52,710 bases of DNA from Opitutales bacterium (GTDB lineage Bacteria > Verrucomicrobiota > Verrucomicrobiia > Opitutales > UBA953), in assembly GCA_017935025.1 (NCBI GenBank), contig JAGBIL010000003.1:1-52710 (forward strand). Direction: 5' to 3'. A program made the position numbers and the translations under genes. Shown here in pieces: positions 10,721 through 49,076 of this stretch. The notes under the pieces are model-generated. The model did no database searches. It was not told the DNA's origin and worked only from the letters and a program-made list of their open reading frames with translations. Numbering within the stretch: position 1 is the first letter of the stretch; each line of letters opens with the position of its first letter.

Positions 10721-10843
10721 AGTGAATAGTTAATAGTGAATAACGAATAACGCATTCTTCAAAATGGAACCTTCGGCGGTATTTGCTCGAACGAGCAAAA
10801 ATCTTAGCACTGAATTATTCACTATTCATTATTCGTTATTAAT
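10721..10843. repeat. Heptad-repeat element between pstC and pstA
   Basis: The left array (10721-10752) consists of 7-base units of the type AGTGAAT, AGTTAAT, AGTGAAT, AACGAAT. The right array (10813-10843) holds the reverse-complement type (ATTATTC, ACTATTC, ATTATTC, GTTATTA). Between them is a 60-base core with a TTTGCTC-GAAC-GAGCAAA hairpin. The same core is found, inverted, at 37611-37671 between atpB and atpE. In a pst transcript the two arrays would pair into a long stem. Confidence 0.85.
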
Positions 10844-10849
10844 TGATAT

Positions 10850-11773
10850 CTACGCTTTTTCGCCGCGTTTGGCAGAAGTCAAATGCAGGTAATACTGAGC
10901 GAAAACCTGAATTCCGAACGACATCGCAAGTAACACGAGTCCGAGCGCGAAAAGCGCGCTGCGCTGGAGTCCGTCCGCTTCCGCAAAATTGTTCGCAAGA
11001 GTCGCGGCAATCGTCGTTCCCGAGTCAAAGAGCGCGCCGGGAACTTCCATCATGTTTCCGACAACGAAAAGCACCGCCATCGTTTCGCCGAGCGCGCGCC
11101 CGAGTCCGATAAACACACCGCCGAGCAAGCCGCGCACGCCGTATTTCATCACGATATCTTTCGCACATTCCCATTTCGTACAACCGATTCCGTAGGCGGA
11201 TTCGCGTAAAACCGCAGGCGTCATTTTAAAAACGTCGCGCATAATCGCGCAAATATACGGCAAAATCATCAGCGCAAGAATCAGTCCCGCCGTGAAAAAT
11301 CCGAAACCGTTGAAACCGTATTCGCCGACCAAAAGCCCGCCGAGCACGGGAACGTTTTCCAAACCGATCGTTTCCGCAAGAAACGGCTGAACGTAATTTT
11401 GCATCAGCGGCGCGAGAACGAAAAGCCCCCACATCCCGTAAATCACGCTCGGAATCGCGGCGAGCAAGTCGATCGCCTGCGAAAGCACGCGCCCGACAAG
11501 CGGCGGAGCGTCCGTCAGATAAAGCGCGGAAACGAAGGCAAGCGGGAGCGCGACGGCGAGCGCAATCACCGTCGTGAGCAGCGTTCCCGCGATCGACGGG
11601 AGCGCACCGAATTTTTCGGCAACCGGGTCCCATTCCGACGACCAGAGAAACCCGAGCCCGAATTGCGCCCAGGCATCGCTCGAATTGACGAAAAGCTGGA
11701 CAAAAAAGCTCAGCATCAGCAACCCGATCAAACAGGCGCAACCGAGGCAAAGCGTCTTGAAAAAGGAATCCAT
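10850..11773 (-). CDS. pstC: Phosphate ABC transporter permease PstC
   Basis: The second permease of the Pst complex, partner of PstA. At 307 residues it has the N-terminal helix and a periplasmic region (WAQFGLGFLWSSEWDP) characteristic of PstC, followed by six further hydrophobic segments. The cytoplasmic EAA-like loop reads ESAYGIGCTKWECAKDIVM. Heptad-repeat elements separate it from pstS upstream and pstA downstream, so the operon is spread out, but all four genes point the same way. Confidence 0.93.
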   Translation of the reverse strand: MDSFFKTLCLGCACLIGLLMLSFFVQLFVNSSDAWAQFGLGFLWSSEWDPVAEKFGALPSIAGTLLTTVIALAVALPLAFVSALYLTDAPPLVGRVLSQAIDLLAAIPSVIYGMWGLFVLAPLMQNYVQPFLAETIGLENVPVLGGLLVGEYGFNGFGFFTAGLILALMILPYICAIMRDVFKMTPAVLRESAYGIGCTKWECAKDIVMKYGVRGLLGGVFIGLGRALGETMAVLFVVGNMMEVPGALFDSGTTIAATLANNFAEADGLQRSALFALGLVLLAMSFGIQVFAQYYLHLTSAKRGEKA

Positions 11774-11783
11774 TTTTTTGAAA

Positions 11784-11940
11784 GGTTACGGGTGAATGGT
11801 GACAAGTGACAGGTTCTCACCTTTTCGGCAAACGCGTGGAACGTTGAATGTGTAATGTTTAATAAACAATAAACCTTAAACAATCCACGCGCCGCAGGCG
11901 CTGTATTAACCGGTCACCTGTCTCCGCCCACCTGTTACGT
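11784..11940. repeat. Nested heptad-repeat element between pstS and pstC
   Basis: The outer left array (11784-11817) reads GGTTACG, GGTGAAT, GGTGACA, AGTGACA. The outer right array (11910-11940) is the inverted type (CCGGTCA, CCTGTCT, CCGCCCA, CCTGTTA). Inside lies a second array pair with a different unit (AACGTTG, AATGTGT, AATGTTT, then AATAAAC, AATAAAC, CTTAAAC), itself bounded by CGCGTGGA and TCCACGCG. This looks like one element inserted into another. Confidence 0.8.
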
Positions 11941-12998
11941 TAGTTCAGTGCTTTTTCCCGAATGAGAGAAACGACGTTTTCCGGAATCGGAACGTAATTC
12001 AGGCGCGCTGCGGAAGAAGCGCCTTCCGTAAAGCACCAGTTAAAGTAATCTTTCAGCGCCGCTTTCGTTCCCGCGTCCGCATCTTTGCGGAGCAAAACGT
12101 AAGTAACACCGGTAATCGGCCACGATTCTGCGCCGGGCTGATCGGTGAGCATCATCAGAAATCCGGGAGCGTTTTTCCAATCCGCGTTCGCCGCACTCGC
12201 CGCAAAACTTTTCGCCGTCGGAGCGATAAACGCACCGCTTTGATTTTCAAGTTGCGTGCAATTCAGGTTCGCTTCCAGCGCATACGTATATTCGGTGTAG
12301 CCGATGCTTCCGCGAATTTTGGCAACGTTGTTACAAACGCCCGGATTCTTTTGTCCGCCGATTCCGACCGGCCATTTGACGGACGAGCCCGCACCGACTT
12401 TTTCCTTCCATTCGCCGGAAATCTTGCTCAGATAATCCGTGAAAATAAACGTCGTTCCCGAAGAATCCGAGCGACGCACTACCGTAATTTTCAGATTTTT
12501 CGGAAGGCGTACGCCGGGATTGATTTTCGCAATCGCGGGATCATTCCAATTCGTGATTTTCCCGAGAAAAATATCCGCCAGCACTTCGCGGCTGAGTTTG
12601 AGCTCGCCGGACTTTACGCCGGGAACGTTGACGATGACAACCACACCGCCCGTGAGCATCGGAAACTGGATCAGCCCGTCGTTCGCCTGCTGCTCCGCCG
12701 TAAGCGGATTATCCGTTCCCGCGAAGTCCACCGTTCCCGCCCTGATTTGGCTAAGTCCGGCACCGGAGCCGAGGCTTTGGTAGTTGACGCTCGCTCTGCC
12801 CGTCTGCGTGTAAGCGTAGGTCCACAGCTGGTAAACCGGAGCCGGGAACGACGCGCCCGCGCCGTTGAGCGTAATCGCATTTGCGGCGGGCTTTTTCGCC
12901 GGAATTGCATTTTCTGCGTCGCCGCAGCCCGACAGGAGCAATGCCGATGCCGCCGCGAAAACCGGGAAAAGTGTTCCGATGAGCAATTTCTTTTTCAT
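11940..12998 (-). CDS. pstS: Phosphate-binding lipoprotein PstS
   Basis: Periplasmic phosphate-binding component. A lipoprotein signal ends at LLSGC. The mature domain carries the family hallmarks: LNGAGASFPAPVYQLW at its start, NYQSLGSGAGLSQI, DFAGTDNPLT, and VVRRSDSSGTTFIFTDYL, where Ser, Arg and Thr side chains bind phosphate. At 352 residues the length is normal. Lipid anchoring rather than a free periplasmic form is common outside Proteobacteria. It lies between the porin and pstC genes. No clear Pho box was found upstream of the cluster. Confidence 0.95.
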   Translation of the reverse strand: MKKKLLIGTLFPVFAAASALLLSGCGDAENAIPAKKPAANAITLNGAGASFPAPVYQLWTYAYTQTGRASVNYQSLGSGAGLSQIRAGTVDFAGTDNPLTAEQQANDGLIQFPMLTGGVVVIVNVPGVKSGELKLSREVLADIFLGKITNWNDPAIAKINPGVRLPKNLKITVVRRSDSSGTTFIFTDYLSKISGEWKEKVGAGSSVKWPVGIGGQKNPGVCNNVAKIRGSIGYTEYTYALEANLNCTQLENQSGAFIAPTAKSFAASAANADWKNAPGFLMMLTDQPGAESWPITGVTYVLLRKDADAGTKAALKDYFNWCFTEGASSAARLNYVPIPENVVSLIREKALN

Positions 12999-13088
12999 AA
13001 CGTTTTCAAATATTGGTTGTTTTCGATTTTGTTCCTCTATTTTCGCGTTCCCGCGTTTAGAGATTATTCCAAAATTATTAGTTTTCGG

Positions 13089-14279
13089 TTAGAACGTTGC
13101 TTGAAGCTGGAGGCGAAACGCATTGGCGTTTTCGTCCCGTTGCCCGCCGTCGAAGTCAGTGTATTCGTACCCGGCGGAGATTTTGATATGCTTATTGGCG
13201 TAAAAATTGGCGCCGATATAAATCCCCTGAGCGGAATCGTAGTCCTTGCGTCCGTCCGTAGGGACGTTTTTGAGCTTAGACGGATCGATATTTTGATTGT
13301 CGCCGACATCGAGGCAGGAAAAGCGAATGACCGGTTCGATATTGTTATCGAATTTGTAAGCGAACGTCGCGTTCAGCCCCCACGCCGAATCCGTCATTAC
13401 CTCGCTGTCGCCGTCGGCGAAAAGTCCGTCGAAAACAGCTTGGAATCCTCCGGAAGAAATCTTCATATACGGTTCCAGACCGTAAACATTTCCGGCAACG
13501 CGTTTTGCAGCGCCGGAGGTTTCGTCATCATTCCCCGGATTGTAAACGCCGTTGATTCCGAGTTCCACGCGGGCGGCATCCGTCTCCCATTCGTAAGCGA
13601 CGTTCCCGTAGAATGCGACTCCGTCGTTTTGGTCGGCGTTAATGTCTTCCTTGTATTGATTCGTGATTGCGAAGCCGTATTTGATGTCGGAGATTTTTCC
13701 GTCCCACCAAACGCCGCCGTGGCGTCCGGCGAGCGATCCGTTTGCGAGAGTTGTGAAGTAAACGGTCGCGACGGATTGCTCGATGCAAAGCTGCGTTTTT
13801 GAGGAAGAATATTCTTCCATCACAAAGCTCGGCTTTTGGTACCCTGCCGTAAATTTTCCGGAATCGGATTTGTAAGCGATAATTGCCTTATCGACGAAAA
13901 TCGTACTGCTGTCTGCTCCGAGTTTTCCGCCTTTGTTGCCGCTGTCGATTTCAAAACCGACTTCGGCACTCCATTCGTCGGAGATTTCGCCTTTGACGGA
14001 AATCGCCGCTCGCCGAATGGCGAATCCGGAATTTGCGTTTGCGGAGTTATTTTTACTGTCGTTGTAAAAATACTGCGCCTGCGCGTAGCCGGAGATTTTG
14101 ATTTTCGCCTGCTCGGCGGCTTTTTTCAGATTCGGGAGCGTTACGGTTATTGTGTCGTCGGAATTTTTCCCGTCGGCTACACTTGTCGTTTGCGTTCCCG
14201 CGGTTTCGGCAGCGGCAACGTTCGCGATGAGCATCGCTGCTGCGGTTAAAGAGTATAGGTTGAGCTGTTTTTTCATCAT
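13089..14279 (-). CDS. Phosphate-selective porin, OprP/OprO family
   Basis: Outer-membrane beta-barrel of 396 residues. A signal peptide (LTAAAMLIANVAAAE) is followed by a short coiled segment, then alternating strands that begin with ISGYAQAQYFYND and end with a terminal aromatic (QLQATF), typical of barrel proteins. Motifs such as FAIRRAAISVKGEISDEW and VDKAIIAYKSDSGKFTAGYQKP are those of the phosphate-selective porin O/P family. Its position in front of pstS supports phosphate or polyphosphate as the solute. ATGATG is preceded by AAAGGA, a good ribosome-binding site. Confidence 0.9.
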   Translation of the reverse strand: MMKKQLNLYSLTAAAMLIANVAAAETAGTQTTSVADGKNSDDTITVTLPNLKKAAEQAKIKISGYAQAQYFYNDSKNNSANANSGFAIRRAAISVKGEISDEWSAEVGFEIDSGNKGGKLGADSSTIFVDKAIIAYKSDSGKFTAGYQKPSFVMEEYSSSKTQLCIEQSVATVYFTTLANGSLAGRHGGVWWDGKISDIKYGFAITNQYKEDINADQNDGVAFYGNVAYEWETDAARVELGINGVYNPGNDDETSGAAKRVAGNVYGLEPYMKISSGGFQAVFDGLFADGDSEVMTDSAWGLNATFAYKFDNNIEPVIRFSCLDVGDNQNIDPSKLKNVPTDGRKDYDSAQGIYIGANFYANKHIKISAGYEYTDFDGGQRDENANAFRLQLQATF

Positions 14280-14427
14280 TTTCCTTTAATGAATTGAAGT
14301 CCCTACAGCCTACGCCTGTTATGTTGCAGAAATATTTGTTCCGAGTTAGGAATGCGTTAAATCCGTTTTGTTTCGGAATAATCTCTACGTCCGAAAAGAT
14401 AATTGCACGGGAAAACCGATCTCCGGA

Positions 14428-14459
14428 CGGGCGACGTTGTTGCAACCGCCCGGATTTTT
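14428..14459 (+). promoter_or_regulatory. GC-rich hairpin with short T tract upstream of the thioredoxin gene
   Basis: A two-part stem (CGGGCG at 14428-14433 with CGCCCG at 14447-14452, plus GTTG with CAAC inside) is followed by GATTTTT on the plus strand. It lies about 95 bases before the ATG of the thioredoxin-fold gene and upstream of the divergent porin. It could be an attenuator in that leader, or chance structure. Confidence 0.3.
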
Positions 14460-14552
14460 GTCCGCAGATACCGATCCTAAACGGCGGGAACACACAAATT
14501 CCTATAAAAACAGTTGAAATTAAAGGGCCATTCTCTTACAAAAGAACCCGTT

Positions 14553-15545: not shown

Positions 15546-15569
15546 TTCCGGTTGCTCCGATTTCAAAAA

Positions 15570-15607
15570 AGCGTTCCCGCGATCTCTTCGCGGGAACGCT
15601 TTTTTTT
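15570..15607 (+). terminator. Rho-independent terminator made of an inverted GGGAACG pair
   Basis: A 12-bp perfect stem (AGCGTTCCCGCG at 15570-15581, CGCGGGAACGCT at 15589-15600) is followed by seven T residues. Both arms are copies of the overrepresented GCGGGAACG word. It terminates the thioredoxin-fold gene. Confidence 0.93.
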
Positions 15608-18363: not shown

Positions 18364-18457
18364 GTGCCAAACATCAAATATCAGGCATCAAATGCTCACT
18401 TCAAAATTTTGCCAAAGGAACACTTCGCTTGAAGCTTGATGCCTGGCGCTTGGGGCT
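18364..18457. repeat. Heptad-repeat element between the ABC fusion gene and ftsY
   Basis: The left array (about 18366-18393) reads CCAAACA, TCAAATA, TCAGGCA, TCAAATG. The right array (18428-18457) reads CTTGAAG, CTTGATG, CCTGGCG, CTTGGGG. Both keep an exact 7-base period and are inverted relative to each other. The core between them contains CTTCAAAATTTTGCC, the word that recurs in other cores of the family. Confidence 0.8.
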
Positions 18458-18463
18458 AAAAAA

Positions 18464-19382: not shown

Positions 19383-19424
19383 CGGTGATAGGTGAAAGTT
19401 GATAGTTGAAAAGTGAAAGTTTAG
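19383..19424. repeat. Solo heptad array abutting the ftsY start
   Basis: Six consecutive 7-base units (GGTGATA, GGTGAAA, GTTGATA, GTTGAAA, AGTGAAA, GTTTAGG) start two bases from the ftsY start codon. No inverted partner with the same unit was found nearby; another element with a different unit follows at 19430. Confidence 0.75.
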
Positions 19425-19429
19425 GGAAG

Positions 19430-19523
19430 CCGGATAGAGACCGGTAAATACTTCAAAATTTTTGCCTCCGGCAAAAATCTTAGCACGATGCCGGTCTCTC
19501 ATCTCTGGTCTCCGGTCTCTATT
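19430..19523. repeat. Heptad-repeat element between nusB and ftsY
   Basis: The short left arm (GGATAGA, GACCGGT) is followed by the core CTTCAAAATTTTTGCC with loop TCC and GGCAAAAATCTTAGCAC. The right array then reads CCGGTCT, CTCATCT, CTGGTCT, CCGGTCT, CTATTTC. The last unit, read on the minus strand, contains the TAG stop codon of nusB, so the array begins inside the end of that gene. Confidence 0.8.
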
Positions 19524-27105: not shown

Positions 27106-27562
27106 TTAATGAATAGTGAATAATGAATAGTGAATAACGCAGTGCTAAAAGGATTCAGATTTTCTCTTCGAGAAAAATTCGGCGTTTCGTCGTATTGATT
27201 GTAGCCGTAAGCATTTTTATTAACTCGATGCAATCCGCTTGTAGAGATTCAAACTGAGTTTGTGTAACAAACTCCCCTTCAAACAGAAGTTCCAACCAAT
27301 ATTCGGTTCCCGCAGCTTCCTTCAACGCAATGCTCATTTTTGAAACGAAATCTCTTTTGCTCTGCGCGTATCCCGCTTCGCAAACATTTGCACCGATGCT
27401 CGTTCCGCTCCGAAGGAGTTGATCGGACAAAATGCGTTCCCGCACTTTATCCGTTAAATATCGATTCAGTTTCACAATTCGCATTGCGAACTTCTTCGAT
27501 TTTTCTCTCAACTTATTTTCAGGCACTGCGTTATTCACTATTCATTATTCACTATTCGTTGG
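27106..27562 (-). mobile_element. Heptad-repeat element carrying a four-helix-bundle gene, copy 1
   Basis: Arrays of TAGTGAA/TAATGAA units bracket the gene at 27155-27538. The two arms are a perfect 35-base inverted repeat (27111-27145 and 27523-27557) including the inner boundary GAATAACGCAGTGC. The gene starts within the right arm. Inserted between atpD and atpC. It has the same arms as the protein-less elements at 37160-37274 and 37582-37690, so those look like non-autonomous relatives. Confidence 0.75.
27155..27538 (-). CDS. Four-helix-bundle protein, 23S-rRNA-intervening-sequence/Avd family
   Basis: A 127-residue all-helical protein. KKFAMRIVKLNRYLTDK, then LLRSGTSIGANVCEAGYAQSK and a late EYWLELLFEG segment are family hallmarks of the small proteins first known from intervening sequences in 23S rRNA. 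The same fold occurs in Avd of diversity-generating retroelements. They bind nucleic acid through a basic pore in a pentamer. The start is a GTG at 27538, lying inside the heptad array of the right arm. The gene is inserted between atpD and atpC and read in the same direction. No reverse transcriptase is nearby. A role in the element's mobility is inferred. Confidence 0.88.
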   Translation of the reverse strand: MNNAVPENKLREKSKKFAMRIVKLNRYLTDKVRERILSDQLLRSGTSIGANVCEAGYAQSKRDFVSKMSIALKEAAGTEYWLELLFEGEFVTQTQFESLQADCIELIKMLTATINTTKRRIFLEEKI

Positions 27563-30314: not shown

Positions 30315-30352
30315 TTTCTTTAAGCTTTAAGCCCTAAGCTCTCAACTTTCTA
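30315..30352. repeat. Solo heptad array after atpG
   Basis: On the minus strand, starting at the atpG stop, the units run TAGAAAG, TTGAGAG, CTTAGGG, CTTAAAG, CTTAAAG. The TAG stop codon is part of the first unit. No inverted partner follows before dinD. Confidence 0.75.
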
Positions 30353-31249
30353 CCCTGCGTTGGAGGCGGCGAGCTCGTTGATTTCGTTCGTGATGGCGGC
30401 TTGGCGCGCCTTGTTGTATTCGAGGGAAAGCGAATCGACGAGGTTTTTCGCGTTGTCCGTTGCGGCTTTCATCGCGACCATGCGCGCGGACTGCTCGGAC
30501 GCCTTCGCTTCCAAAATCGCCTGATACAAACTCTGTTTGAAAAACAGCGCGGGAAGCCCTTCGAGAATCGTTCCCGCGTCGGGCGCGAAAGACATTTCGC
30601 GGTCGTCTTCAAGTAGCTTAAATTCTTCCTTTTTGCCCTGCGCGGCAAACTGCGCCTGCATACGTTCCTCCAAGTTCCCGAGCGGGACGAGCGGAGTCAT
30701 CGTCGGCACCTGTACAATCGTGTTTTTGAACTGCGAAAGCACAATTTCGATCGTGTCGATCGTTCCCGCGAGATATTCCTTAATCAAAAATTCCCCGATC
30801 GGGCGCACTTCGGAAAAGTTCACGCGGTCGCTCACGGTAAAATCCGCCACGAGGTCGCGCTTCGAACGCGCCACGAACTGCGTCGCTTTTTTCCCGACGG
30901 TAAAAAACTTCGCCGGCGTTCCCGCGGGAACGTTTTTGTTCAAAAAGCGAAACAGGTTGGAGTTGAGCCCGCCGCACAGCCCTTTGTCCGTCGCGATAAC
31001 GACGATCCCGCGCGTTTTCACGGGACGGTCCTGCATGAGCGGATGCGAAAAATCGCCCGACAAATCGAGCCCGCGCAACGCCGTCGCCAAAATCCGCGAA
31101 AGCAGCACCGCATACGGACGCCCGGAGGTCGCGGCGTCCTGCGCGCGGCGCATTTTCGACGATGCGACCAGCTGCATCGCACGCGTGATTTGTCCGGTAT
31201 TCGTCACCGAACGAATACGATTTCGAATTTCTCGTAAACCTTTGGCCAT
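30350..31249 (-). CDS. atpG: ATP synthase gamma subunit
   Basis: Rotating central shaft of F1. The N-terminal coiled coil (LREIRNRIRSVTNTGQITRAMQLVASSKMRRAQ) and the C-terminal coiled coil (MVAMKAATDNAKNLVDSL, LEYNKARQAAITNEI) form the shaft, with a Rossmann-like globular part in between (GIVVIATDKGLCGGLNSNL). At 299 residues it is slightly long, with a small loop around residue 200. A second four-helix-bundle element separates it from atpA. Within the coding sequence, 30918-30934 holds a palindromic pair of the GGGAACG word. Confidence 0.97.
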   Translation of the reverse strand: MAKGLREIRNRIRSVTNTGQITRAMQLVASSKMRRAQDAATSGRPYAVLLSRILATALRGLDLSGDFSHPLMQDRPVKTRGIVVIATDKGLCGGLNSNLFRFLNKNVPAGTPAKFFTVGKKATQFVARSKRDLVADFTVSDRVNFSEVRPIGEFLIKEYLAGTIDTIEIVLSQFKNTIVQVPTMTPLVPLGNLEERMQAQFAAQGKKEEFKLLEDDREMSFAPDAGTILEGLPALFFKQSLYQAILEAKASEQSARMVAMKAATDNAKNLVDSLSLEYNKARQAAITNEINELAASNAG

Positions 31250-31258: not shown

Positions 31259-31730
31259 TAGATTAAAGATTAAAGTTTAAAGATTAAAGACGGGTTAAAG
31301 ATTAAAGAATTTTAGACTGTTTGTTTCGTCGCAAAACGCTAAGCATTTTTCCCAACTCCTCAAATTGAGGGGCAAGACGGTCGAAGTTTTCCTGCGTCAA
31401 ATAGCCTAAATCAACGGCGATCTGAAGCTGGCAAAACGTCTCAACCAAGGAACCATACGCAATTTCAAGGAACTGAACCTGATCGCGATCGGACCCGCGG
31501 CTGCTCCCTTCCGCGATATTCGACGGCACGGAAACAACGGCTCGCCGTATCTGTGCGGTAAGTGTGTACTGTTCAACCGCCGGAAAATCCGAAATGGCAA
31601 GATATACGTCTTTTACGAGTTGGCGCGACTTCTGCCACACCAACAACTTTTGGAACGCAAAAAACGAATTCACCATTTTTAGAAAATTACAAATTCTTTA
31701 ATCTTTAACCTCTAATCTTTAATCTTTTTA
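31259..31730 (-). mobile_element. Heptad-repeat element carrying a four-helix-bundle gene, copy 2
   Basis: The left arm (31259-31307) is a run of GATTAAA units, and the right arm (31694-31730) is the inverse (CTTTAAT, CTTTAAC, CTCTAAT, CTTTAAT). The innermost 20 bases of both arms are identical in inverted orientation. The gene at 31302-31676 ends inside the left arm, and the right arm begins at the atpA stop codon. The heptamer differs from copy 1, but the architecture is the same. Confidence 0.7.
31302..31676 (-). CDS. Four-helix-bundle protein, second copy in the atp locus
   Basis: A 124-residue member of the same broad family as the protein at 27155-27538 but of another subgroup. FQKLLVWQKSRQLVKDVYLA, LTAQIRRAVVSVPSNIAEGSS and FLEIAYGSLVETFCQLQIA are the standard conserved blocks. 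The SVPSNIAEG block is the most diagnostic. The low similarity between the two copies argues against recent duplication of one by the other. Its stop codon (TAA) is provided by the CTTTAAT heptad array. Inserted between atpA and atpG and co-oriented with them. The molecular role is unknown; nucleic-acid binding is inferred from the family. Confidence 0.88.
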   Translation of the reverse strand: MVNSFFAFQKLLVWQKSRQLVKDVYLAISDFPAVEQYTLTAQIRRAVVSVPSNIAEGSSRGSDRDQVQFLEIAYGSLVETFCQLQIAVDLGYLTQENFDRLAPQFEELGKMLSVLRRNKQSKIL

Positions 31731-36295: not shown

Positions 36296-36323
36296 TTCGT
36301 TTTAAAGATTTTTTATTTACGAA

Positions 36324-36539
36324 TTATTTTCCCCGCATCAGAAAATCCACGATGTTCCAAGCCATCGAAGACTCCTGTTTATAAAATTCGGTGTAACCGC
36401 ATTGCGTGCAGGAAACGGCTGTGAACTTTTTGTTCTGCACGTTGAAAATCTTGGAGAAATTGCCGCCCGTCGTCTGAACCGTATCGTGTTCAAACGATGT
36501 GCTTCCGCACTTCGGGCAAATGTAATTTCCGCTTCTCAT
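36324..36539 (-). CDS. Small zinc-ribbon protein inserted in the atp locus
   Basis: A 71-residue protein with two CxxC knuckles, ICPKCGSTSFE and VSCTQCGYTEFYKQ, forming one zinc ribbon. Such small proteins are annotated as predicted nucleic-acid-binding zinc-ribbon proteins (DUF2082-like). The C-terminal NIVDFLMRGK completes the match. It lies between atpF and atpH, an unusual place, with a solo heptad array between it and atpF. Its function is not established. Confidence 0.75.
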   Translation of the reverse strand: MRSGNYICPKCGSTSFEHDTVQTTGGNFSKIFNVQNKKFTAVSCTQCGYTEFYKQESSMAWNIVDFLMRGK

Positions 36540-36544
36540 GACGG

Positions 36545-36584
36545 CTTTCTTTAATCTCTAATCTTTAACCTTTAATCTCTTTCG
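36545..36584. repeat. Solo heptad array overlapping the end of atpF
   Basis: On the minus strand the units are GAGATTA, AAGGTTA, AAGATTA, GAGATTA, AAG. They start inside the atpF coding region and contain its TAA stop codon, so the last residues of the protein (KEIKG) are encoded by the array. The unit is close to that of the four-helix-bundle element at 31259-31730. Confidence 0.75.
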
Positions 36585-37159: not shown

Positions 37160-37274
37160 GGTAGTGAATAATGAATAGTGAATAGCTAATAATTCATTGC
37201 TCAGGTTTTTGCCGACGGCAAAAACTTTGAACACTGCGTTATTCATTATTCACTATTCATTATTCACTAACTTT
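37160..37274. repeat. Heptad-repeat element between atpE and atpF
   Basis: The left array (TAGTGAA, TAATGAA, TAGTGAA, TAGCTAA, TAATTCA) and right array (GTTATTC, ATTATTC, ACTATTC, ATTATTC, ACTAAC) flank a core with hairpin GTTTTTGCC-GAC-GGCAAAAAC and the boundary ACACTGCGTTATTC. No gene inside. The arms closely match those around the four-helix-bundle gene at 27155. Confidence 0.85.
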
Positions 37275-37581: not shown

Positions 37582-37690
37582 CGAACAACGAACAATGAAT
37601 AGTGAATAACTCAGTGCTAAGATTTTTGCTCGAATGAGCAAATACCGCCGAAGGTGCCATTTTGAAGAATGCGTTATTCATTATTCACTA
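37582..37690. repeat. Heptad-repeat element between atpB and atpE
   Basis: The left array (GAACAAC, GAACAAT, GAATAGT, GAATAAC) is followed by the core CAGTGCTAAGATTTTTGCTC with loop GAAT, then GGTGCCATTTTGAAGAATGC, and by the right array (GTTATTC, ATTATTC, ACTAAC). The core is nearly identical, in inverted orientation, to that between pstC and pstA. The TAA stop of atpB lies inside the right array. Confidence 0.88.
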
Positions 37691-38553
37691 ACTTCCTCGT
37701 GGCCGTCGTCGTGATTCGTAATCAGCCCGATGTAGACTGCGGAAAGCAACGTAAACACGAGAGCCTGAACAACGCCGACGAGTATTTCCAGAAAGTAAAA
37801 AGCCGTAAAGTAACCGGTTGAGTGCATCAACGTTTCGCCGCCGAAAACGTTCCCGAAAAGTCGGAACGAAAGTGAAACCGGACGAAACACAATCGAGATA
37901 ATTTCGATAAATCCGACCGCGAAAAACACGAGCGAGAGAAAGTAATAAACCGCCGCAGGAACGTCGCGCTTATCCGCCTTGTTCCCGAACCAATCAAAGA
38001 AAACCGCCTTCGGGCCCGCGTACTTGAAAATCAGAATCGCCCACGCACCGAACGACACGAGCGCGAGCCCGAGCGTGCCGTTCATATCCGCGCCGAGCGC
38101 ACGAAACAACGGGACAAAATGCTCGGTTTCCGTGCCGTCTGCCGCAATCACCGTTTCGTGCCAACCGATTGTCCCGACACCCGGAATCAGCCCCGCCCAA
38201 TTTTGCGCAAGAATGAAGAAAAACAGGCAAATCAACAGCGGGAACGCTGCAGGAAACGCCTTTTTTCCGAGAATCGGCTCCAAAATTTCCTTAAACATAC
38301 CGATCACGGTTTCGATCGCGTATTGTCCCTTCGACGGAACGAGTTTCGGGTTCCCGCACGCGAGGCGAATCAGCACAATCAGCAGAATCGCCACAATCCA
38401 CGCTGTCACGATACTGTTCGTAATCGGCAACGAAAATCCGTCCCAAAGCGGAATTTCAAAAAGATTTTCGGCAGCTTCCGTCGCCGCCGAGGCGACAGGC
38501 GCCGCCATGAGCAACGCTGCAGTGCAGGGGAAAAGTTTCATCAAACGAGTCAT
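37681..38553 (-). CDS. atpB: ATP synthase a subunit
   Basis: Membrane stator subunit with about five to six helices that forms the ion half-channels. An N-terminal signal-like stretch (CTAALLMAAPVASA) is followed by WDGFSLPITNSIVTAWIVA and the C-terminal signature with the essential Arg (SLSFRLFGNVFGGE). The frame opens at a GTG at 38577; the ATG at 38553 is preferred. It is the first gene of the atp locus. The final codons and stop (V-S-E-stop) are built from a heptad array. Confidence 0.95.
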   Translation of the reverse strand: MTRLMKLFPCTAALLMAAPVASAATEAAENLFEIPLWDGFSLPITNSIVTAWIVAILLIVLIRLACGNPKLVPSKGQYAIETVIGMFKEILEPILGKKAFPAAFPLLICLFFFILAQNWAGLIPGVGTIGWHETVIAADGTETEHFVPLFRALGADMNGTLGLALVSFGAWAILIFKYAGPKAVFFDWFGNKADKRDVPAAVYYFLSLVFFAVGFIEIISIVFRPVSLSFRLFGNVFGGETLMHSTGYFTAFYFLEILVGVVQALVFTLLSAVYIGLITNHDDGHEEVSE

Positions 38554-41135: not shown

Positions 41136-41177
41136 GGTTTAGAAAAATGCGTTCCCGCAAGAGAATCACGTTCCCCG

Positions 41178-41320
41178 CGTTCCCGCAAATTGAAATTTAG
41201 CGAAGCGCAATGAGAGGAATGGGAAGAAAGAGAAGAATGAGTATTTTCCCGTTTCTCTCATTCATCCCATTCTTCTCATTAATCACCTGGCGCTTCGCTA
41301 AATTTCAATTTGCGGGAACG
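41178..41320. repeat. Nested palindrome between gltX and tilS
   Basis: An outer perfect 31-base inverted repeat (41178-41208 with 41290-41320), whose ends are CGTTCCCGC and GCGGGAACG, encloses an inner pair of heptad arrays (units like AATGAGA, GGAATGG, GAAGAAA, GAGAAGA on the left; TCTCATT, CATCCCA, TTCTTCT on the right). The whole 143-base region could fold into one long hairpin. It lies in the divergent promoter gap. Confidence 0.85.
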
Positions 41321-41352
41321 GGCGGCGGGGACGCATAATAACGCCGAAAACC

Positions 41353-42861
41353 ATGCACGCAACGGACTGGCAGAACAATGCAATTGCGCTTTTTGCGAAA
41401 ACGAAAGACTCGAAATTTTTCCGGACATTTCATTCGGAATTTGAAATTCGAGATTCGCAATCCGCAATCGCCGTAGCCTGCTCCGGCGGCGCGGATTCGC
41501 TCGCAGCGTTGCTTCTGACTTGGGCAAAATTTCCCGGAGCGCGGGAACGGCTTTGCGTTTTGCATTTCGACCACGCCGTGCGCAAAGAAAGCGCGGCGGA
41601 CGCCGAATTCGTGCGCAAAGTTTGCGCCGCGCTCGACATCGGATTTATTTGCCAGCGCCGCGTTCCCGCGCCCGAGGAAAACCGCCATTCCGAAGCGGAT
41701 TTGCGTGCCGCTCGCCTGGACTTTTTCGCCCGGGAAATGCACAAGCGCGGCATCAAAATCCTCGTGCAGGGACACCAGCGCGACGACATCGCCGAAACGC
41801 TTTTGATGCGCCTCACGCGCGGCGCGGGAACGGACGGACTTGCCGCACCGCGAAAAATTTCGCCGCAACCCGACGGGCGCGTTTTTGTGCGTCCGCTTCT
41901 GGACATTCCCAAAGAAAACATCGTTTCCGCTCTGCGCGACTGCGAAATTCCGTGGTGCGAAGATGCCACCAACGCGGGAACGGATTATTTCCGCAATCGC
42001 GTACGCAACCGCGTTTTGCCGGAACTCCGCGATGCCGCACCGTTTGAAAACATCGCGCGTTCCCGCAAACTCGCCGAGGAAGATGCCGATGCCTTAGATT
42101 TTTTCGCAAACGAGATTTTCAAAAAAAGTCATACTTCGAGCACTACGCATCGAGCCGTTTTTTGCCTGATGCCTGATGCCCGATGTTCGAAACTCGTCTC
42201 TTTCCCGGCGATTGCGCGTCGCGTTTTGAGAAAAATTTTTGCGCAGGAAAAAATCGAAACCGACGGTGCGGCGGTCGCCGACGCATTCGTCGAAGCGATT
42301 TGCGCGGGAACGCCGTTGAAAAAACAAATCGGCAACCGCGAAATCGTTTGGACGGGAACGGAATTACGCCTGGGAGAAGCGGAGTCCCGCCGCCTTATCT
42401 TGGGAGAAGCGGACTCCGGCCGCTTCCGCGAAAACGAAAATTCGTCCGTAAATTTTCCTACGCGCCAAAATTCCGCCTCCCGCGAAAACCGCGAGATGCA
42501 GCTTCGCCCATACTTTTTTGAAAAAGTCTTCGTCACGGAAGAACTTTTCGCAAAAATCCGCGCGGGAGCATTTTCGCCGGATGAAACGGTTTTTCTCGCG
42601 GGAACGCCGGAAATTTTCGTGCGCGAACTTTTGCCCGAAGAAAAATTCCGTCCGCTCGGCGCACCGGGCGAAAAATCCGTTTTGAGAATTTTTACAGACA
42701 AAAAAATCCCCCGGGAACGCCGAAAAAACATCCCCGTTTTCGCCGACGGCACGGGAATTGCATGGATTCCGGGATTGCCGCCTGCGGAACGCTTCCGAAT
42801 CCGTGCGGCGGGAACGACGGCTCTGCGGTTGACTTACCGCCGCGAGGCTTTACCTTTATAG
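41353..42861 (+). CDS. tilS: tRNA(Ile)-lysidine synthase with internal repeat insertions
   Basis: Modifies C34 of tRNA-Ile2 to lysidine using ATP and lysine, so that AUA is read correctly. The PP-loop signature VACSGGADSLAALLL (about residues 40-55) and GHQRDDIAETLLMRLTRGAG are clear. The C-terminal TilS domain is at about 380-502. At 502 residues it is longer than many. Three stretches are repeat DNA in frame: heptads at 41436-41470 just before the PP-loop, GCCTGAT heptads at 42164-42184, and two copies of a 27-base palindromic unit at 42371-42427. These probably lie in linkers. Confidence 0.93.
   Translation: MHATDWQNNAIALFAKTKDSKFFRTFHSEFEIRDSQSAIAVACSGGADSLAALLLTWAKFPGARERLCVLHFDHAVRKESAADAEFVRKVCAALDIGFICQRRVPAPEENRHSEADLRAARLDFFAREMHKRGIKILVQGHQRDDIAETLLMRLTRGAGTDGLAAPRKISPQPDGRVFVRPLLDIPKENIVSALRDCEIPWCEDATNAGTDYFRNRVRNRVLPELRDAAPFENIARSRKLAEEDADALDFFANEIFKKSHTSSTTHRAVFCLMPDARCSKLVSFPAIARRVLRKIFAQEKIETDGAAVADAFVEAICAGTPLKKQIGNREIVWTGTELRLGEAESRRLILGEADSGRFRENENSSVNFPTRQNSASRENREMQLRPYFFEKVFVTEELFAKIRAGAFSPDETVFLAGTPEIFVRELLPEEKFRPLGAPGEKSVLRIFTDKKIPRERRKNIPVFADGTGIAWIPGLPPAERFRIRAAGTTALRLTYRREALPL
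41436..41470. repeat. Heptad array inside the 5' end of tilS
   Basis: Five exact 7-base units (GGAATTT, GAAATTC, GAGATTC, GCAATCC, GCAATCG) encode residues around EFEIRDSQSAIA directly before the PP-loop. This is coding DNA with the same periodicity as the intergenic arrays. Confidence 0.65.
42164..42184. repeat. Heptad array inside tilS
   Basis: Three units (GCCTGAT, GCCTGAT, GCCCGAT) are read in frame as CLMPDAR. The unit matches the TCAGGCA-type arrays at 18366-18393 and 48805-48832 in the opposite orientation. The surrounding segment is Ser/Thr-rich and looks like an extra loop. Confidence 0.7.
42371..42427. repeat. Two REP-like palindromic units inside tilS
   Basis: Two 27-base copies, both starting TGGGAGAAGCGGA and spaced 30 bases apart, encode the near-duplicate LGEAESRRLI and LGEADSGRF. 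Each is palindromic (for example GAAGCGG with CCGCTTC), so they resemble REP units captured in a coding sequence. Confidence 0.65.
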
Positions 42862-44977: not shown

Positions 44978-45015
44978 TTCCTTTCTTCCTCCAAAATTGC
45001 TCATTTTTTCGCCTC

Positions 45016-46038: not shown

Positions 46039-46554
46039 CATTTCTACGCTGAGAATGTAAGCGCCGATTCGTTTTTCAACACAGAGGCGCACAGAGATGA
46101 CTCTGGCGTGCGGAGCTTGGGGAATGCACGCAAACAAAACTGCGCCGCGGGAACGACGTCTTCGCTCACGGATGCTCTCGCGGCTCAATGGAACGGGCTT
46201 CGCTACGCTCGCGAATATCAAATCTCAAACTCCGAATAAAAAATTCGTGAAAATTTGTGTAAAACATCGGATGTCTCACGAAAGCGACAAGAGTGTCATT
46301 ACGGTCCGAAACGTTTTGGCGGCGCGGGAATGGTGTTTATTTATGCGGGAGAGAGCCCGAACGTGTGATTTTTTCTTTTTTAGAAAACTCAACGCCTCGG
46401 AGAGGCGTTATGTTCTAAAACCCTGCGCGTAAGCGTAGGGAAAGGAACGAAAAAAGACGAAACAAAACCGGATGACGCGCAGATACGCAGTGTTCGCGTT
46501 CCCGCCGCCAAAAACGTTTGGGACGGGAATGGCAGGATGTCGCCCCTCCCGCCG
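46039..46554. other. Gene-free gap between convergent surA-like and udg genes, with REP-like palindromes
   Basis: The 516-base gap has no credible gene. It holds a possible heptad run at 46213-46233 (GAATATC, AAATCTC, AAACTCC), two palindromes (46391-46409 and 46421-46440), one GGGAACG word (46149) and one CGTTCCC word (46497). No clear terminator for either flanking gene was identified. Confidence 0.5.
46391..46440. repeat. Pair of REP-like palindromes
   Basis: AACGCCTC-GGA-GAGGCGTT (46391-46409, perfect 8-bp stem) is followed 11 bases later by CCCTGCGC-GTAA-GCGTAGGG (46421-46440, one mismatch). Two palindromes at fixed short spacing in a long intergenic gap is the arrangement of REP or BIME-like elements. 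Confidence 0.65.
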
Positions 46555-47607
46555 TTATTTTTTCGGAAGGAAGAAGTTGCGCTGGCGTTCGGAAATCGGA
46601 AGCTCGGCAATTTCCATCATGCGAAGAAAATCTTCCCACGCCGCACGCTTGGATTTTACCGAATCGTTGCGCAAAAGATACGACGGGTGATACGTCGCGA
46701 CGACGGGAATACCGCGAAAATCCAGCGTTTTCCCGCGCATCGCGCCAATGCGCCGATCGGGGTCGAACCCGAGCAACCCGTTTACGGCTGTCAGCCCGAG
46801 CGCAACGATGACGCGCGGACGGATAATTTCCGTTTGCGCCGCAAGATACGGCAGGCAGTACGCCATTTCTTCGGGCGTAGGCGGACGGTTGCCGTAAAGC
46901 GTCGGAAGTTCCGGCCTCCATTTCATAATGTTGCCGATGTAAACCTGCTCGCGAGCCAGTCCGGCGGCGGCAATCATTTTGTCCAAAAGTTTACCCGCAG
47001 GACCGACAAACGGACGTCCGGCGGTTTCTTCTTCCGCGCCGGGAGCTTCGCCGCAGAAAAACACGGAGGCTTCCGCGTTGCCTTCGCCGAAAACGAGATG
47101 TTTTCCTTTGTGCAAGTGCTCGTTGCAAATCGGATCGCCGAGCATTTGCGTACGCAGCGCGTCGAGGCGTTCGGCGTTCGTTCCCGTCGCGGGAACGGCG
47201 GCAACGCGCGCTTTGCTGACGGAAACATCGAAGCTCGGAGCTTTTTTCTCCGGCGCGGCGGGAACGCTTTTTGCCGGAGTCGGTTTCGAGGAAACAATTT
47301 CGTCGAAAGAAATCGGCGGGAACGGTTCCGGATCGGGCGCACGCAGATTTTGTTGCGGAGGCGGAGAAACCCGGGGCGACGAGTGCGGCGACGGTTTTTT
47401 GGAGGAAACGGGCGACGGAGTCGGGCGAACGGAAGCCGCAGAAGCAACATCGGCGACGCGCGTTCCCGTGGCGGCGTTTTCGCGCACGGCGGCAGCAACG
47501 CGCGTACGCAAAGTCTCGAGCGCTTCTTCGCTGACGAAAACATCCGTCGTGCCCTCGTTTTTGAGGGCACGCAGATTCCCGAGCAAAACCTCCAACTCCG
47601 CGCGCAT
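46555..47607 (-). CDS. Uracil-DNA glycosylase, family 4 type, with Pro/Ser-rich N-terminal extension
   Basis: Base-excision repair enzyme removing uracil from DNA. The catalytic C-terminal half (about residues 155-350) has VFFCGEAPGAEEETAGRPFVG, YIGNIMKWRPEL, VIVALGLTAVNGLLG and VVATYHPSYLLRN, all typical of family 4/5 enzymes, which often bind an iron-sulfur cluster. The first ~140 residues are a low-complexity extension rich in Pro, Ser and Ala, seen in several bacterial phyla and probably flexible. Transcribed after hisI, from which it is separated by a heptad inverted pair. Confidence 0.92.
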   Translation of the reverse strand: MRAELEVLLGNLRALKNEGTTDVFVSEEALETLRTRVAAAVRENAATGTRVADVASAASVRPTPSPVSSKKPSPHSSPRVSPPPQQNLRAPDPEPFPPISFDEIVSSKPTPAKSVPAAPEKKAPSFDVSVSKARVAAVPATGTNAERLDALRTQMLGDPICNEHLHKGKHLVFGEGNAEASVFFCGEAPGAEEETAGRPFVGPAGKLLDKMIAAAGLAREQVYIGNIMKWRPELPTLYGNRPPTPEEMAYCLPYLAAQTEIIRPRVIVALGLTAVNGLLGFDPDRRIGAMRGKTLDFRGIPVVATYHPSYLLRNDSVKSKRAAWEDFLRMMEIAELPISERQRNFFLPKK

Positions 47608-47611
47608 TTTG

Positions 47612-47683
47612 AGTTAATTGATAATTAATAACGGATAATGGATAGTCTTAAAAATTATCAATTATCCGCTATCCGTTATTCCT
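47612..47683. repeat. Heptad inverted pair between hisI and udg, almost no core
   Basis: The left array (TAATTGA, TAATTAA, TAACGGA, TAATGGA) and right array (ATTATCA, ATTATCC, GCTATCC, GTTATTC) are inverted and separated only by about ten bases. It is the clearest case of an array pair without a hairpin core or gene. Confidence 0.85.
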
Positions 47684-47690
47684 TAAAAAA

Positions 47691-48119
47691 TTATTCCATC
47701 CCCGGAACAAAACGCAGCGTTTTACCGTCGGTCAAATCGAGCGAGCGATAGTAACACCCGCGACGTGCGAGCCCGTCCTGGCCTTTCGTGTGGCACGCGC
47801 CTTTTCCGGCGGGACGCACGAGATAAAGAAGCGAGTTCTGTTCGCAGTTGACTCGGACTTCAACGAGTTTCAGGTAATCACCGGAAGTTTTTCCTTTAAT
47901 CCAAAGCTCGTTGCGGGACGTGCTCCAAAACGTCGCCATGCCTTCTTTTAACGCCGTTTCAAGCGCAAGCGCATTCGCGTAAGCGACAATCAGCACTTCT
48001 TTTGTATCGGCGTCCTGCGCGACCACGGGAACGACATCGGACTCGCATTGCGCAACCGCTTTGCGCAGTTTCGTGAAGTCGAAATTAAAAACGGAACCTT
48101 CTTCGATTTCTTTGCTCAT
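47691..48119 (-). CDS. hisI: Phosphoribosyl-AMP cyclohydrolase
   Basis: Third step of histidine synthesis: opens the adenine ring of phosphoribosyl-AMP. DADTKEVLIVAYANALALE and the Trp-Ser region FWSTSRNELWIKGKTSGDYL match the family. The zinc and magnesium ligands are in VNCEQNSLLYLV and CHTKGQDGLARRGCYYR. At 142 residues it is the monofunctional form without a HisE domain. No other his gene lies nearby, so the pathway is dispersed. Confidence 0.94.
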   Translation of the reverse strand: MSKEIEEGSVFNFDFTKLRKAVAQCESDVVPVVAQDADTKEVLIVAYANALALETALKEGMATFWSTSRNELWIKGKTSGDYLKLVEVRVNCEQNSLLYLVRPAGKGACHTKGQDGLARRGCYYRSLDLTDGKTLRFVPGME

Positions 48120-48198
48120 GATGATGATTTATAAAAAAGTTAAAAATGAGGAATGAGGGAAGTTGTTTTGACGATTATTCCGCAACGGTTTCCGATTA

Positions 48199-48750
48199 TC
48201 AATTACTATTCAGCCGCTCAACGACAAGAGTGAGCCGCGCGGAAAGCACTTCGATGCGGCGCATAATAAAATTGTTGGCGAGAAGCACGGGCATCGCAAT
48301 CAGCAAGCCGAGCATCGTCGTCGTCAGCGCGAGTCCGACCCCGCGCACCAGCATTTGCTGATCCGGCATTCCGCCGTCCTCAGGAAAAAGAATGTAGAGC
48401 CCGTAAACCGTCCCGAAAAGACCGATTAGCGGAGCGATAGAAACAATGGATTCCGGAATGAACATTCCGCGTTCCATGCGGGAAACTTCAATGCGCGCAA
48501 ACGCCGTAAGAGCTGCCGCGTCCGGTTTTTCCCGAAGCGCAAAATCAACGATGCGTCCGCCGGCAGTTTTCGGAAACGCTTTTGCCGTCGCCGCGAAATC
48601 GCCGGAGAGAATCAGTTCCAGCGCTTTTCGCGGCAGGATGCGGTTTTCGCGCAGGGCGATCATGCGCTCAAGAATTACCGCCATCGCCAGAAGCGAACAA
48701 AAACCCAAAGGCCAAATAAACCAGCCCGCGCCCTCAATAATCGTTTGCAT
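48199..48750 (-). CDS. MotA/TolQ/ExbB proton channel protein
   Basis: A 183-residue inner-membrane protein. A first helix (WFIWPLGFCSLLAMAVILERM) precedes a cytoplasmic loop and two more helices (VSIAPLIGLFGTVYGLYILF, then GLALTTTMLGLLIAMPVLLANNFI), the ExbB plan with the conserved Gly/Thr-rich pore. It is short and partners an ExbD/TolR protein; the only candidate here is at 5043-5456, over 40 kb away. The frame runs back to 48813, but that start codon is part of a heptad array, so the ATG at 48750 is preferred. Confidence 0.85.
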   Translation of the reverse strand: MQTIIEGAGWFIWPLGFCSLLAMAVILERMIALRENRILPRKALELILSGDFAATAKAFPKTAGGRIVDFALREKPDAAALTAFARIEVSRMERGMFIPESIVSIAPLIGLFGTVYGLYILFPEDGGMPDQQMLVRGVGLALTTTMLGLLIAMPVLLANNFIMRRIEVLSARLTLVVERLNSN

Positions 48751-48795
48751 AAAAGAAAAATAACGCCGAATCTCCGGTAGCGAAACGTAAAAGTT

Positions 48796-49076
48796 GAATT
48801 TAGCGTCAGGCATCAGGCTTCAAACATCAGGCAAAGTGTTAAGAGAACCTCTATAAATAGAGTTTCCGATGAGAGAGGAGAGGTAAGAGATGACAGGTAT
48901 TTGCATTTCGCTTCGCGGAAGAGGTTTTCGAAATTCTTTTTCCCGCTCGCGGGAACGCATTTACCTCTAAGCTCTCAGCCCTCAGCTCTCATCGGTTTCC
49001 TCAAAAACGAATTCCTATAGGCTACCTTAAGATTTTTGCCAAAGGCAAAAATCTTGAAGCGCGCGCCTGATATTTT
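48796..49076. repeat. Nested heptad-repeat element upstream of the ExbB-like gene
   Basis: The outer left array (48805-48832: GTCAGGC, ATCAGGC, TTCAAAC, ATCAGGC) faces a right part with GCGCGCC, TGATATT, TTGAGCC and the perfect hairpin AAGATTTTTGCC-AAA-GGCAAAAATCTT (49030-49056). Inside is a second inverted pair with a different unit (48866-48899 and 48962-48995; CTCTAAG, CTCTCAG, CCCTCAG), whose ends share ten bases (CCGATGAGAG). One element appears to have entered another. Confidence 0.8.

What the first reader, a model, noticed from the sequence alone, without database searches (positions are those of the whole stretch)
10721..49076. A family of heptad-repeat elements: inverted 7-nt arrays around a hairpin core or a four-helix-bundle gene
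At least a dozen intergenic sites carry runs of 4-6 degenerate direct repeats with an exact 7-base period. The unit differs by locus (TAGTGAA, GATTAAA, GGTGACA, TCAGGCA, CTCTAAG, GGTCTCT, TAACGGA). Most occur as an inverted pair. Between the pair lies either a short core hairpin (10753, 19451, 37198, 37611, 49026), almost nothing (47612-47683), or a four-helix-bundle gene (27155, 31302). Seen directly: period, inversion, shared boundary words (AACGCAGTGC, AAGATTTTTGCC). Known: heptanucleotide tandem repeats (STRR) exist in heterocystous cyanobacteria, and this protein family occurs in 23S rRNA intervening sequences and as Avd in retroelements. Inference: one mobile family with autonomous and non-autonomous members, whose arrays are rewritten at each site while the period is kept, perhaps by templated slippage. 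In mRNA the arms would form long stems that RNase III could cut.
Basis: partly seen in the sequence, partly recalled or inferred. Interest (0 to 1): 0.93.

Follow-up and report, generated by a model that had tools for sequence, protein, structure and literature searches.

The report
Seven-letter rhythm brackets S23 genes
In bacteria of many phyla a gene for a small helical (S23-type) protein, or in some copies only a hairpin, lies between two mirror-image arrays of a seven- or eight-letter repeat whose letters differ from lineage to lineage while the rhythm stays; the protein likely reads that rhythm at the ends of a mobile element, which would explain the seven-letter repeats long known from cyanobacteria and other bacteria.

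Summary
In 448,710 bases of this genome there are 70 arrays with exact 7-base period, against 0-5 at lags that are not multiples of 3 or 7 and 0 in a simulated control. The seven PF05635 (S23/23S-IVP) genes over the cut-off lie between inverted arms, each with its own unit (two weak, one mixed 7/8). The rule is general: 156 of 183 tested PF05635 loci from more than ten phyla have matching inverted arms, against 16 of 183 (reversed flank), 27 of 913 (flanks swapped) and 3 of 30 (nusB). Period is 7 in 100 and 8 in 40 of the 156. Letters turn over with protein divergence, in both arms together; an inward AG step is kept in 112 of 132 units. Related species differ: empty sites, and different elements at one site. 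Ten relatives without the gene show no 7-base array in 436 kb sampled. Cyanobacterial loci behave alike (27 of 30), linking old heptanucleotide repeats to S23 genes. I infer a mobile element whose ends the S23 ring reads; binding and the moving enzyme are untested.

The parts
10720..10755 (.). 5' heptad array (TAGTGAA type) of a gene-less hairpin element
   Evidence: lag-7 score 19
10756..10815 (.). hairpin core with GCAAAAATCTTAGCAC and inner boundary word
10816..10840 (.). 3' heptad array, inverted partner of 10720-10755
   Evidence: pair score 15-16; in G007 this site holds a GAGCTGA-type element instead
11790..11940 (.). nested element: outer GGTGACA-type arms (seen by eye) around an inner GTTTAAT-type self-inverted array (11835-11881)
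   Evidence: absent from G003 and G007
18427..18457 (.). heptad array (CATCAGG/AAGCTTG type) with a poor partner upstream
   Evidence: lag-7 score 12; pair score 11
19384..19519 (.). mixed site: GGTGATA-type array, hairpin core, GGTCTCT-type array (arms do not match well)
   Evidence: AAATTAG type in G005 and G007, none in G002
27107..27136 (.). heptad array (TAGTGAA type), one end of gene-bearing element A
27155..27538 (-). S23/23S-IVP four-helix-bundle gene (PF05635)
   Evidence: 91.1 bits, cut-off 33.8
27532..27557 (.). inverted heptad array, other end of element A
   Evidence: pair score 26-27; RNA fold with 41-bp closing stem, z -10.3; GATAACT-type element at this site in G001, G003, G007, bare in G002
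30318..30353 (.). single heptad array (GCTTAAA type), unpaired
31260..31290 (.). heptad array (GATTAAA type), one end of gene-bearing element B
   Evidence: lag-7 score 20
31302..31676 (-). S23/23S-IVP four-helix-bundle gene (PF05635), relative of crystal structures 2gsc and 2rld
31684..31727 (.). inverted heptad array, other end of element B
   Evidence: pair score 27; GCTTAAA-type element here in G001, G003, G005, G007, bare in G002
36548..36578 (.). single heptad array (GATTAAA type), unpaired
37162..37191 (.). 5' heptad array (TAGTGAA type) of a hairpin element
37239..37269 (.). 3' inverted heptad array of the same element
   Evidence: pair score 24-25; fold z -11.9
37582..37608 (.). 5' heptad array (TAGTGAA type) of a hairpin element
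   Evidence: GATAACT type here in G001, G003, G007
37671..37691 (.). 3' inverted array of the same element (short, below the array threshold)
   Evidence: sequence; fold z -4.4
41432..41469 (.). single heptad array (AATTCGG type); an S23 gene with the unit AATTCCG occurs in G005
42163..42190 (.). single heptad array (TGCCTGA type)
47615..47685 (.). two inverted arrays (GATAACG/GATAATT type) with almost no core
   Evidence: self-inverted score 29; fold z -5.7
48872..48991 (.). arms of a GAGCTGA-type element inserted in a CATCAGG-type element
   Evidence: absent in G005
49027..49060 (.). core hairpin AAGATTTTTGCC...GGCAAAAATCTT of the outer element

Best explanation
These are copies of a likely mobile DNA element made of a PF05635 (S23/23S-IVP) gene, or only a short hairpin, between two inverted arrays of a 7-nt (elsewhere 8-nt) repeat, whose repeats the S23 protein, predicted to be a pentameric ring like its solved relatives, likely binds as end signals. 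Shown: the architecture in 156 of 183 tested loci; a unit that goes with the lineage and is alike in both arms; an inward-pointing AG step every 7-8 nt in most units; gene and arms present together in one species and absent together in five congeners at one site; gene-less copies sharing array and boundary word with a gene-bearing copy. Inferred: about 4-5 repeats per arm (median 4.6) would let each of five subunits hold one repeat, so that rings on the two arms bring the ends together; the enzyme that cuts and joins is not encoded in the element and is probably borrowed (host replication, or a transposase in trans, as in the cyanobacterial copies that sit inside ordinary terminal-inverted-repeat elements). 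The letters would drift because tandem copies homogenise within an arm by slippage and one arm is copied into the other by template switching at the inverted repeat, while the reader protein keeps spacing and polarity.
For: Array excess. Flank test: 156 of 183 loci at score 16 or more, reversed flank 16 of 183, swapped flanks 27 of 913; with 250-base flanks 30 of 35 loci of the order against 3 of 30 for nusB in the same clade and 15 of 366 for all ORFs of the sampled genome. Period 7 in 100, 8 in 40 of the 156. Inward strand richer in G than C in 144 of 156, poorer in 11; AG in 112 of 132 units inward, 31 outward; 121 distinct units. Median 4.6 copies per arm, 298 arms. Unit goes with lineage, arms in step. 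L004 site: gene plus arms in G000, no arrays in G001, G002, G003, G005, G007 (G004 and G006 not inspected). Two different elements at each of sites A and B. 0 lag-7 arrays in 436 kb of ten gene-less genomes, 144 in 1,033 kb of eleven gene-bearing ones. 55 of 81 arrays match a unit carried by a gene in the genus, 13% of column-permuted controls. Relatives 2gsc and 2rld have five chains each; homopentamer toroid stated in PMC4990558 (passage).
Against: No binding or transposition data. 27 of 183 loci fail the arm test; of the seven own-genome genes L001 and L004 have weak arms and L007's arms are mixed 7/8 with hardly any lag-7 score. Four of the eleven gene-bearing genomes (G009, G018, G029, G034; 40 kb each) had no lag-7 array, so the gene does not always come with many gene-less copies. 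No target-site duplication could be read at the arrays in the window's genus because the spacers are too diverged; the duplications found (G125, G107) belong to outer terminal inverted repeats. 26 of 81 arrays match no known gene's unit. The similarity of the two arms of one locus (0.63) was measured on loci chosen for matching arms; the swapped-flank control is the unbiased one. Many loci are related or share a search pattern.
Confidence: 0.6

Rival explanations
1. An RNA element like the 23S rRNA intervening sequence: the arms pair in the transcript, RNase III cuts the stem and frees or removes the S23 segment, which makes the insertion harmless; pairing, not protein reading, keeps the arms alike.
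For: Element A folds with a 41-bp closing stem (-145.7 against a mean of -96.0 kcal/mol for shuffles, z -10.3); four of five further elements fold with z between -4.1 and -11.9, the fifth with -1.6. The Coxiella intervening sequence has the same gene family, complementary ends, heptamers before the gene, and is cut by RNase III in vitro (passages of PMC4990558).
Against: If the sense RNA stem were selected, G.U should outnumber A.C among arm mismatches; the counts are 233 and 307 (144 loci; a mutation bias could blur this). Pairing alone does not ask for a 7-nt period or for an inward AG step. The elements lie between genes, where removal is not needed.
Confidence: 0.2
2. The S23 gene with its arms is cargo of ordinary transposons: it moves only inside elements with non-periodic terminal inverted repeats, and the arrays serve expression or termination.
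For: In a cyanobacterium (G125) ten copies of one family were looked at; seven have both CTGACGTTACGCA-type ends, and in the six whose two junctions were printed a 7-bp duplication can be read by eye (TTANTAA in five, TAATTAA in one). In another (G107) two 576-bp copies, 99.8% identical, have GTAGGGCTGTTTCATTCT ends, one with a 10-bp duplication.
Against: No such outer ends were noticed by eye at sites A, B, L001 or L004 of the window's genus, and gene-less array pairs there appear to end with the arrays; a systematic search for outer ends was not made, there or in the 183 loci.
Confidence: 0.14
3. Heptad arrays are plain slippage products that happen to mark spacers, and S23 genes land in them as a target.
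For: Arrays without a gene are far commoner than arrays with one.
Against: At the L004 site five congeners have neither gene nor arrays; ten gene-less genomes have no lag-7 array in the stretches sampled; the unit goes with the gene lineage; arms are inverted with a fixed polarity.
Confidence: 0.05

Closest known systems
Intervening sequence (IVS) of 23S rRNA with an S23p gene (Coxiella and others; PMC4990558, passages read)
   Same: same protein family, gene between complementary ends, heptamer repeats (GACAGAT) before the gene in Coxiella
   Different: lies in spacers between genes, not in 23S rRNA; many gene-less copies; units differ between lineages; period-7/8 arms were not described as a general rule in the passages read
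STRR heptanucleotide repeats of heterocystous cyanobacteria (name and host range recalled; a passage of PMC4692102 mentions three heptanucleotides in Calothrix)
   Same: intergenic tandem heptanucleotides; arms of cyanobacterial PF05635 genes look alike
   Different: STRR are described as repeats without a gene (recalled); here they are the ends of an S23 element and occur in many phyla
GGGAATC and GGGGA(C/T)T heptamers of Xanthomonas and Nostoc (PMC4692102, passages read)
   Same: intergenic heptamers; in Xanthomonas 70 and 75 inverted pairs in convergent orientation, so that the G-rich strand points inward as here
   Different: the authors generally found no tie to mobile elements; terms S23 and four helix: 0 hits in the paper; few inverted pairs in Nostoc
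TAACTGA repeats of Beggiatoaceae (PMC4679880, passages read)
   Same: intergenic heptamer arrays, one inverted
   Different: one unit only, discussed as translational control; four-helix and intervening sequence: 0 hits
Avd of diversity-generating retroelements (PMC10053308 and PMC12875486, passages read)
   Same: homologous four-helix-bundle fold
   Different: works with a reverse transcriptase; here RVT_1 is found in 9 of 57 genomes while PF05635 is in 30 of 57; G003, G005, G007, G009 have PF05635 but no RVT_1, though G000 and G001 have one RVT_1 match each

Membership tests
PF05635 (23S rRNA-intervening sequence protein, S23) | profile score over the curated cut-off | tested here: met
   91.1 and 129.2 bits against 33.8
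23S rRNA intervening sequence | S23 gene between complementary ends | tested here: met
23S rRNA intervening sequence | location inside a 23S rRNA gene | tested here: not met
   spacers between protein genes; no Rfam match in the window
23S rRNA intervening sequence | excision by RNase III | not testable with these tools
   needs RNA; stem predicted
STRR heptanucleotide repeats | tandem heptanucleotides in intergenic DNA | tested here: met
   63 of 81 arrays lie mostly outside predicted ORFs although these cover 89%
STRR heptanucleotide repeats | restricted to heterocystous cyanobacteria (recalled) | tested here: not met
   like arrays in many phyla
DGR / Avd | reverse transcriptase in the genome | tested here: not met
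   no RVT_1 in G003, G005, G007, G009, which have PF05635; one match each in G000 and G001, place relative to the elements not examined; Pfam bAvd is under its cut-off
MITE / DNA transposon | terminal inverted repeats | tested here: met
   inverted arrays on both sides
MITE / DNA transposon | target-site duplication at the array ends | tested here: inconclusive
   spacers too diverged; duplications only at outer ends in G125 and G107
REP/REPIN with RAYT transposase | RAYT (Y1) transposase gene | not tested
   no search made

The most novel reading that the evidence does not exclude
A class of mobile element found across bacteria whose ends are defined by rhythm, not by letters: a ring of five S23 subunits counts an inward AG step every 7-8 nt, both arrays drift to new letters in step, and these elements are the source of the heptanucleotide repeats noted for decades (recalled) in cyanobacteria, Xanthomonas and others, with the 23S rRNA intervening sequences as the members that landed in rRNA.
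Probability: 0.35. Interest if true: 0.95.

Novelty: new variant of a known kind. Interest (0 to 1): 0.88.

Why it matters
Three loose ends join: the unknown role of a protein family found across bacteria and in 23S rRNA insertions, the unexplained heptanucleotide repeats of cyanobacteria and xanthomonads, and the excess of 7-base simple repeats reported for bacterial genomes (passages of PMC4679880 and PMC4692102). If the S23 ring reads spacing rather than sequence, it is an unusual way for an element to know its own ends, and it can be tested with one purified protein and a few oligonucleotides.

Tried and rejected
Chance and composition: rejected by lag spectrum and simulation. Reverse transcriptase as a needed partner: rejected, no RVT_1 in several gene-bearing genomes, though G000 itself has one match. 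Sense-RNA stem as the selected feature: not supported. Stop codons in all frames as the function of the arrays: 74 of 132 units hold a stop triplet inward, 59 outward, so no rule. Rfam family in the window: none. Xanthomonas-type repeat in 395 genomes of one class: a single hit, in a genome (G257) that has eight PF05635 genes, five with arms at 16 or more, one of them with GGGAATA/GGGGATT-like arms; suggestive only, and these eight are not in the 183. Clean junctions for a target-site duplication at the arrays: looked for among congeners, not found; the 48.9 kb insertion has TTAAG on both sides but its ends lie outside the arrays. Gene-strand context of arrays: no clear bias. Searches for a paper joining PF05635 or S23 with heptad arrays: (listings); none seen apart from the Coxiella heptamers; the library holds open-licence papers only. 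One search looked for Avd-RNA structures and found nothing to the point.
Full report
What was checked. The window is contig 18 of an unnamed 2.03-Mb draft genome. I scored lag-7 self-matches in the window and in 20 further stretches of the same genome (448,710 bases). At score 12 there are 70 arrays at lag 7, 31 at lag 14, 0-5 at lags from 4 to 30 that are not multiples of 3 or 7, 3-12 at multiples of 3 (codon signal), and none at lag 7 in a first-order Markov simulation. The window holds 19 of the 81 arrays at score 11. Of the 81, 45 have an inverted partner scoring 12 or more within 700 bases (control 8), 29 at 16 or more (control 0), and 7 are inverted within themselves, four of these not among the 45.

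The genes. Both small genes of the window are PF05635. The genome has nine PF05635 matches, seven over the cut-off. These seven have repeat arms on both sides by eye, each with its own unit: GGTGACA, GATTAAA, GAGCTGA, GTTTAAT, AAGCATC, TAGTGAA and a GTGGAAA-like mixed 7/8 array around a shortened gene. By the automatic test with 300-base flanks five of seven reach 16; L001 and L004 reach 15 and 13, and for L001 the test picked a different match, its heptad arms scoring 14. The two matches below the cut-off (L008, L009) are longer frames without arms by eye.

How general it is. I ran the same flank test (300 bases left of the domain against the reverse complement of 300 bases right of it) on 184 PF05635 loci: 35 plus 20 from the window's order (seven of them from the window's genome), 80 named loci from a scan of one genome per species, 20 from three of those genomes and 29 cyanobacterial ones. 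183 could be tested; 156 reach 16, while with the right flank only reversed 16 do. Swapping right flanks between loci gives 27 of 913. With 250-base flanks 30 of 35 loci of the order reach 16, nusB, a gene of like size in the same clade, 3 of 30, and all ORFs of the sampled genome 15 of 366, two of them the window's own S23 genes. By set the positives are 30 of 35, 18 of 20, 64 of 79, 18 of 20 and 26 of 29. By record title the positives include Bacteroidota, Cyanobacteria, Acidobacteria, Planctomycetes, Kiritimatiellae, SAR324, Desulfobacteraceae, KSB1, Hydrogenedentota, Omnitrophica, Gottesmanbacteria, Oscillospiraceae and Nitratifractor; the Nitrospirales and Raymondbacteria loci are among the failures. 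The period is 7 in 100, 8 in 40, 14 in 5, 15 in 4, 9 in 2, others 3, none 2. The median arm has 4.6 copies (298 arms).

What varies and what does not. Among 132 units there are 121 distinct ones. Between loci whose proteins are under 60% identical median arm similarity is 0.15-0.17; at 60-70% 0.29; at 70-80% 0.36; at 80-90% 0.70 (9 pairs); at 90% or more 0.94 (16 pairs). The two arms of one locus agree at 0.63, a figure taken on loci chosen for matching arms. So letters turn over as the protein diverges, and both arms change together. Sometimes each arm is homogeneous in its own way (L104 AAGTGGCA against AAGTTTCA, L151 GGTGAAT against TTGTGAA). Fixed are the spacing, the inversion and a polarity: the strand that reads inward has more G than C in 144 of 156 loci, fewer in 11, and carries AG in 112 of 132 units, against 31 outward. 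The positives include near-relatives; 144 remain after removing loci with alike arms.

Related species. Stretches of the window align at 70-92% with congeners. At site A (27.1-27.6 kb) G000 and G005 carry the TAGTGAA element, G001, G003 and G007 a different S23 gene (51-59% identical) with GATAACT arms, and G002 a bare 38-base spacer; at site B (31.25-31.73 kb) G000 has GATTAAA arms, G001, G003, G005 and G007 a gene 58-59% identical to it with GCTTAAA arms, and G002 23 bases. The tree groups the two site A genes together (94/90), so these may be diverged alleles of one old insertion; at site B it gives no such grouping. Hairpin elements change type in the same way: the 10.7 kb site is TAGTGAA in three species and GAGCTGA in G007; the 37.6 kb site is TAGTGAA in two and GATAACT in three. 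The L004 gene with its arms is present in G000; G001, G002, G003, G005 and G007 have the spacer without any array, G004 and G006 were not inspected. At the L001 site G005 has a hairpin element instead of the gene, G003 and G007 one arm of it, and G002 nothing. Three own-genome copies (L001, L003, L004) begin, by eye, within about 10 bases behind a stop codon.

Gene and arrays across genomes. Ten relatives without PF05635 gave no lag-7 array in 435,628 bases (two lag-8 hits). Eleven with it gave 144 in 1,032,537 bases, but four of these eleven (G009, G018, G029, G034; 40 kb each) gave none. 55 of the 81 arrays of G000 match the unit of an S23 gene found in the genus at score 16, against 13% of column-permuted arrays. 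The hairpin elements of TAGTGAA type share the word AA[CT][GT]CAGTGC next to the array with both ends of the site A gene element (10 of its 11 occurrences follow such an array, two of these degenerate), as expected of internally deleted, gene-less copies.

Cyanobacteria. 87 of 120 genomes of the order of a cyanobacterial locus have PF05635; 27 of 30 tested loci have arms at 16 or more (control 4), with units such as AGTGCTG, AGGGAAC and AGGCTTT, which look like the published heptanucleotide repeats of that group (resemblance recalled). In one genome (G125) ten copies of one S23 family were read; seven have outer inverted ends on both sides, with 7-bp duplications read by eye in the six whose junctions were printed. 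In another (G107) two 576-bp copies, 99.8% identical, lie inside other outer ends. So S23 units can also travel inside ordinary transposons.

Mechanism. The solved relatives 2gsc and 2rld have five chains each, and PMC4990558 calls the Xanthomonas protein a homopentamer with toroidal structure (passage). Four to five repeats per arm, a fixed spacing and a fixed inward polarity with free letters fit a ring that holds one repeat per subunit at each end. That is inference. The RNA-stem rival has strong predicted folds and the Coxiella precedent, but the mismatch test gives sense G.U 233 and A.C 307, the wrong way for selection on a sense-RNA stem. A reverse transcriptase is not needed in the genome: G003, G005, G007 and G009 have the gene and no RVT_1 match, although G000 and G001 have one each. 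Template switching between arms and slippage within arms are proposed for the letter drift; neither was tested.

Known and new. The protein family, the 23S rRNA insertions and the heptamer repeats are each known. No paper found in eight searches joins them, except that the Coxiella paper notes heptamers before its S23 gene. I file the window elements as a new variant of the S23 intervening-sequence kind that lives between genes; the general rule of rhythm without letters is, as far as these searches show, new.

Noticed in passing
41150-41330: A conserved outer hairpin (AAATTGAAATTTAGCGAAGCGC) holds a 9-periodic AATGAGAAG-type inverted array here, while in G005 the loop of the same hairpin holds an AATTCCG-type heptad element.
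   Followed up: partly
48840-49030: About 185 bases with GAGCTGA-type arms, flanked by TTAAG on both sides, are absent in G005; the ends of the insertion lie outside the arrays.
   Followed up: partly
L007: A shortened S23 gene (81-codon frame) between a mixed 7/8 array pair, apparently a decayed copy in the same genome.
   Followed up: no
L336-L345: Cyanobacterial genome G125 holds ten copies of one S23 family, seven with CTGACGTTACGCA-type ends on both sides; the left array has 3 or 4 units depending on the copy.
   Followed up: partly
L349, L350: Two 576-bp copies, 99.8% identical, with GTAGGGCTGTTTCATTCT ends around an S23 gene; one has a 10-bp TATTAGGAGA duplication.
   Followed up: partly
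36300-36550: G001, G003 and G005 carry about 1 kb more than the window at the spacer beside the single array at 36548.
   Followed up: no
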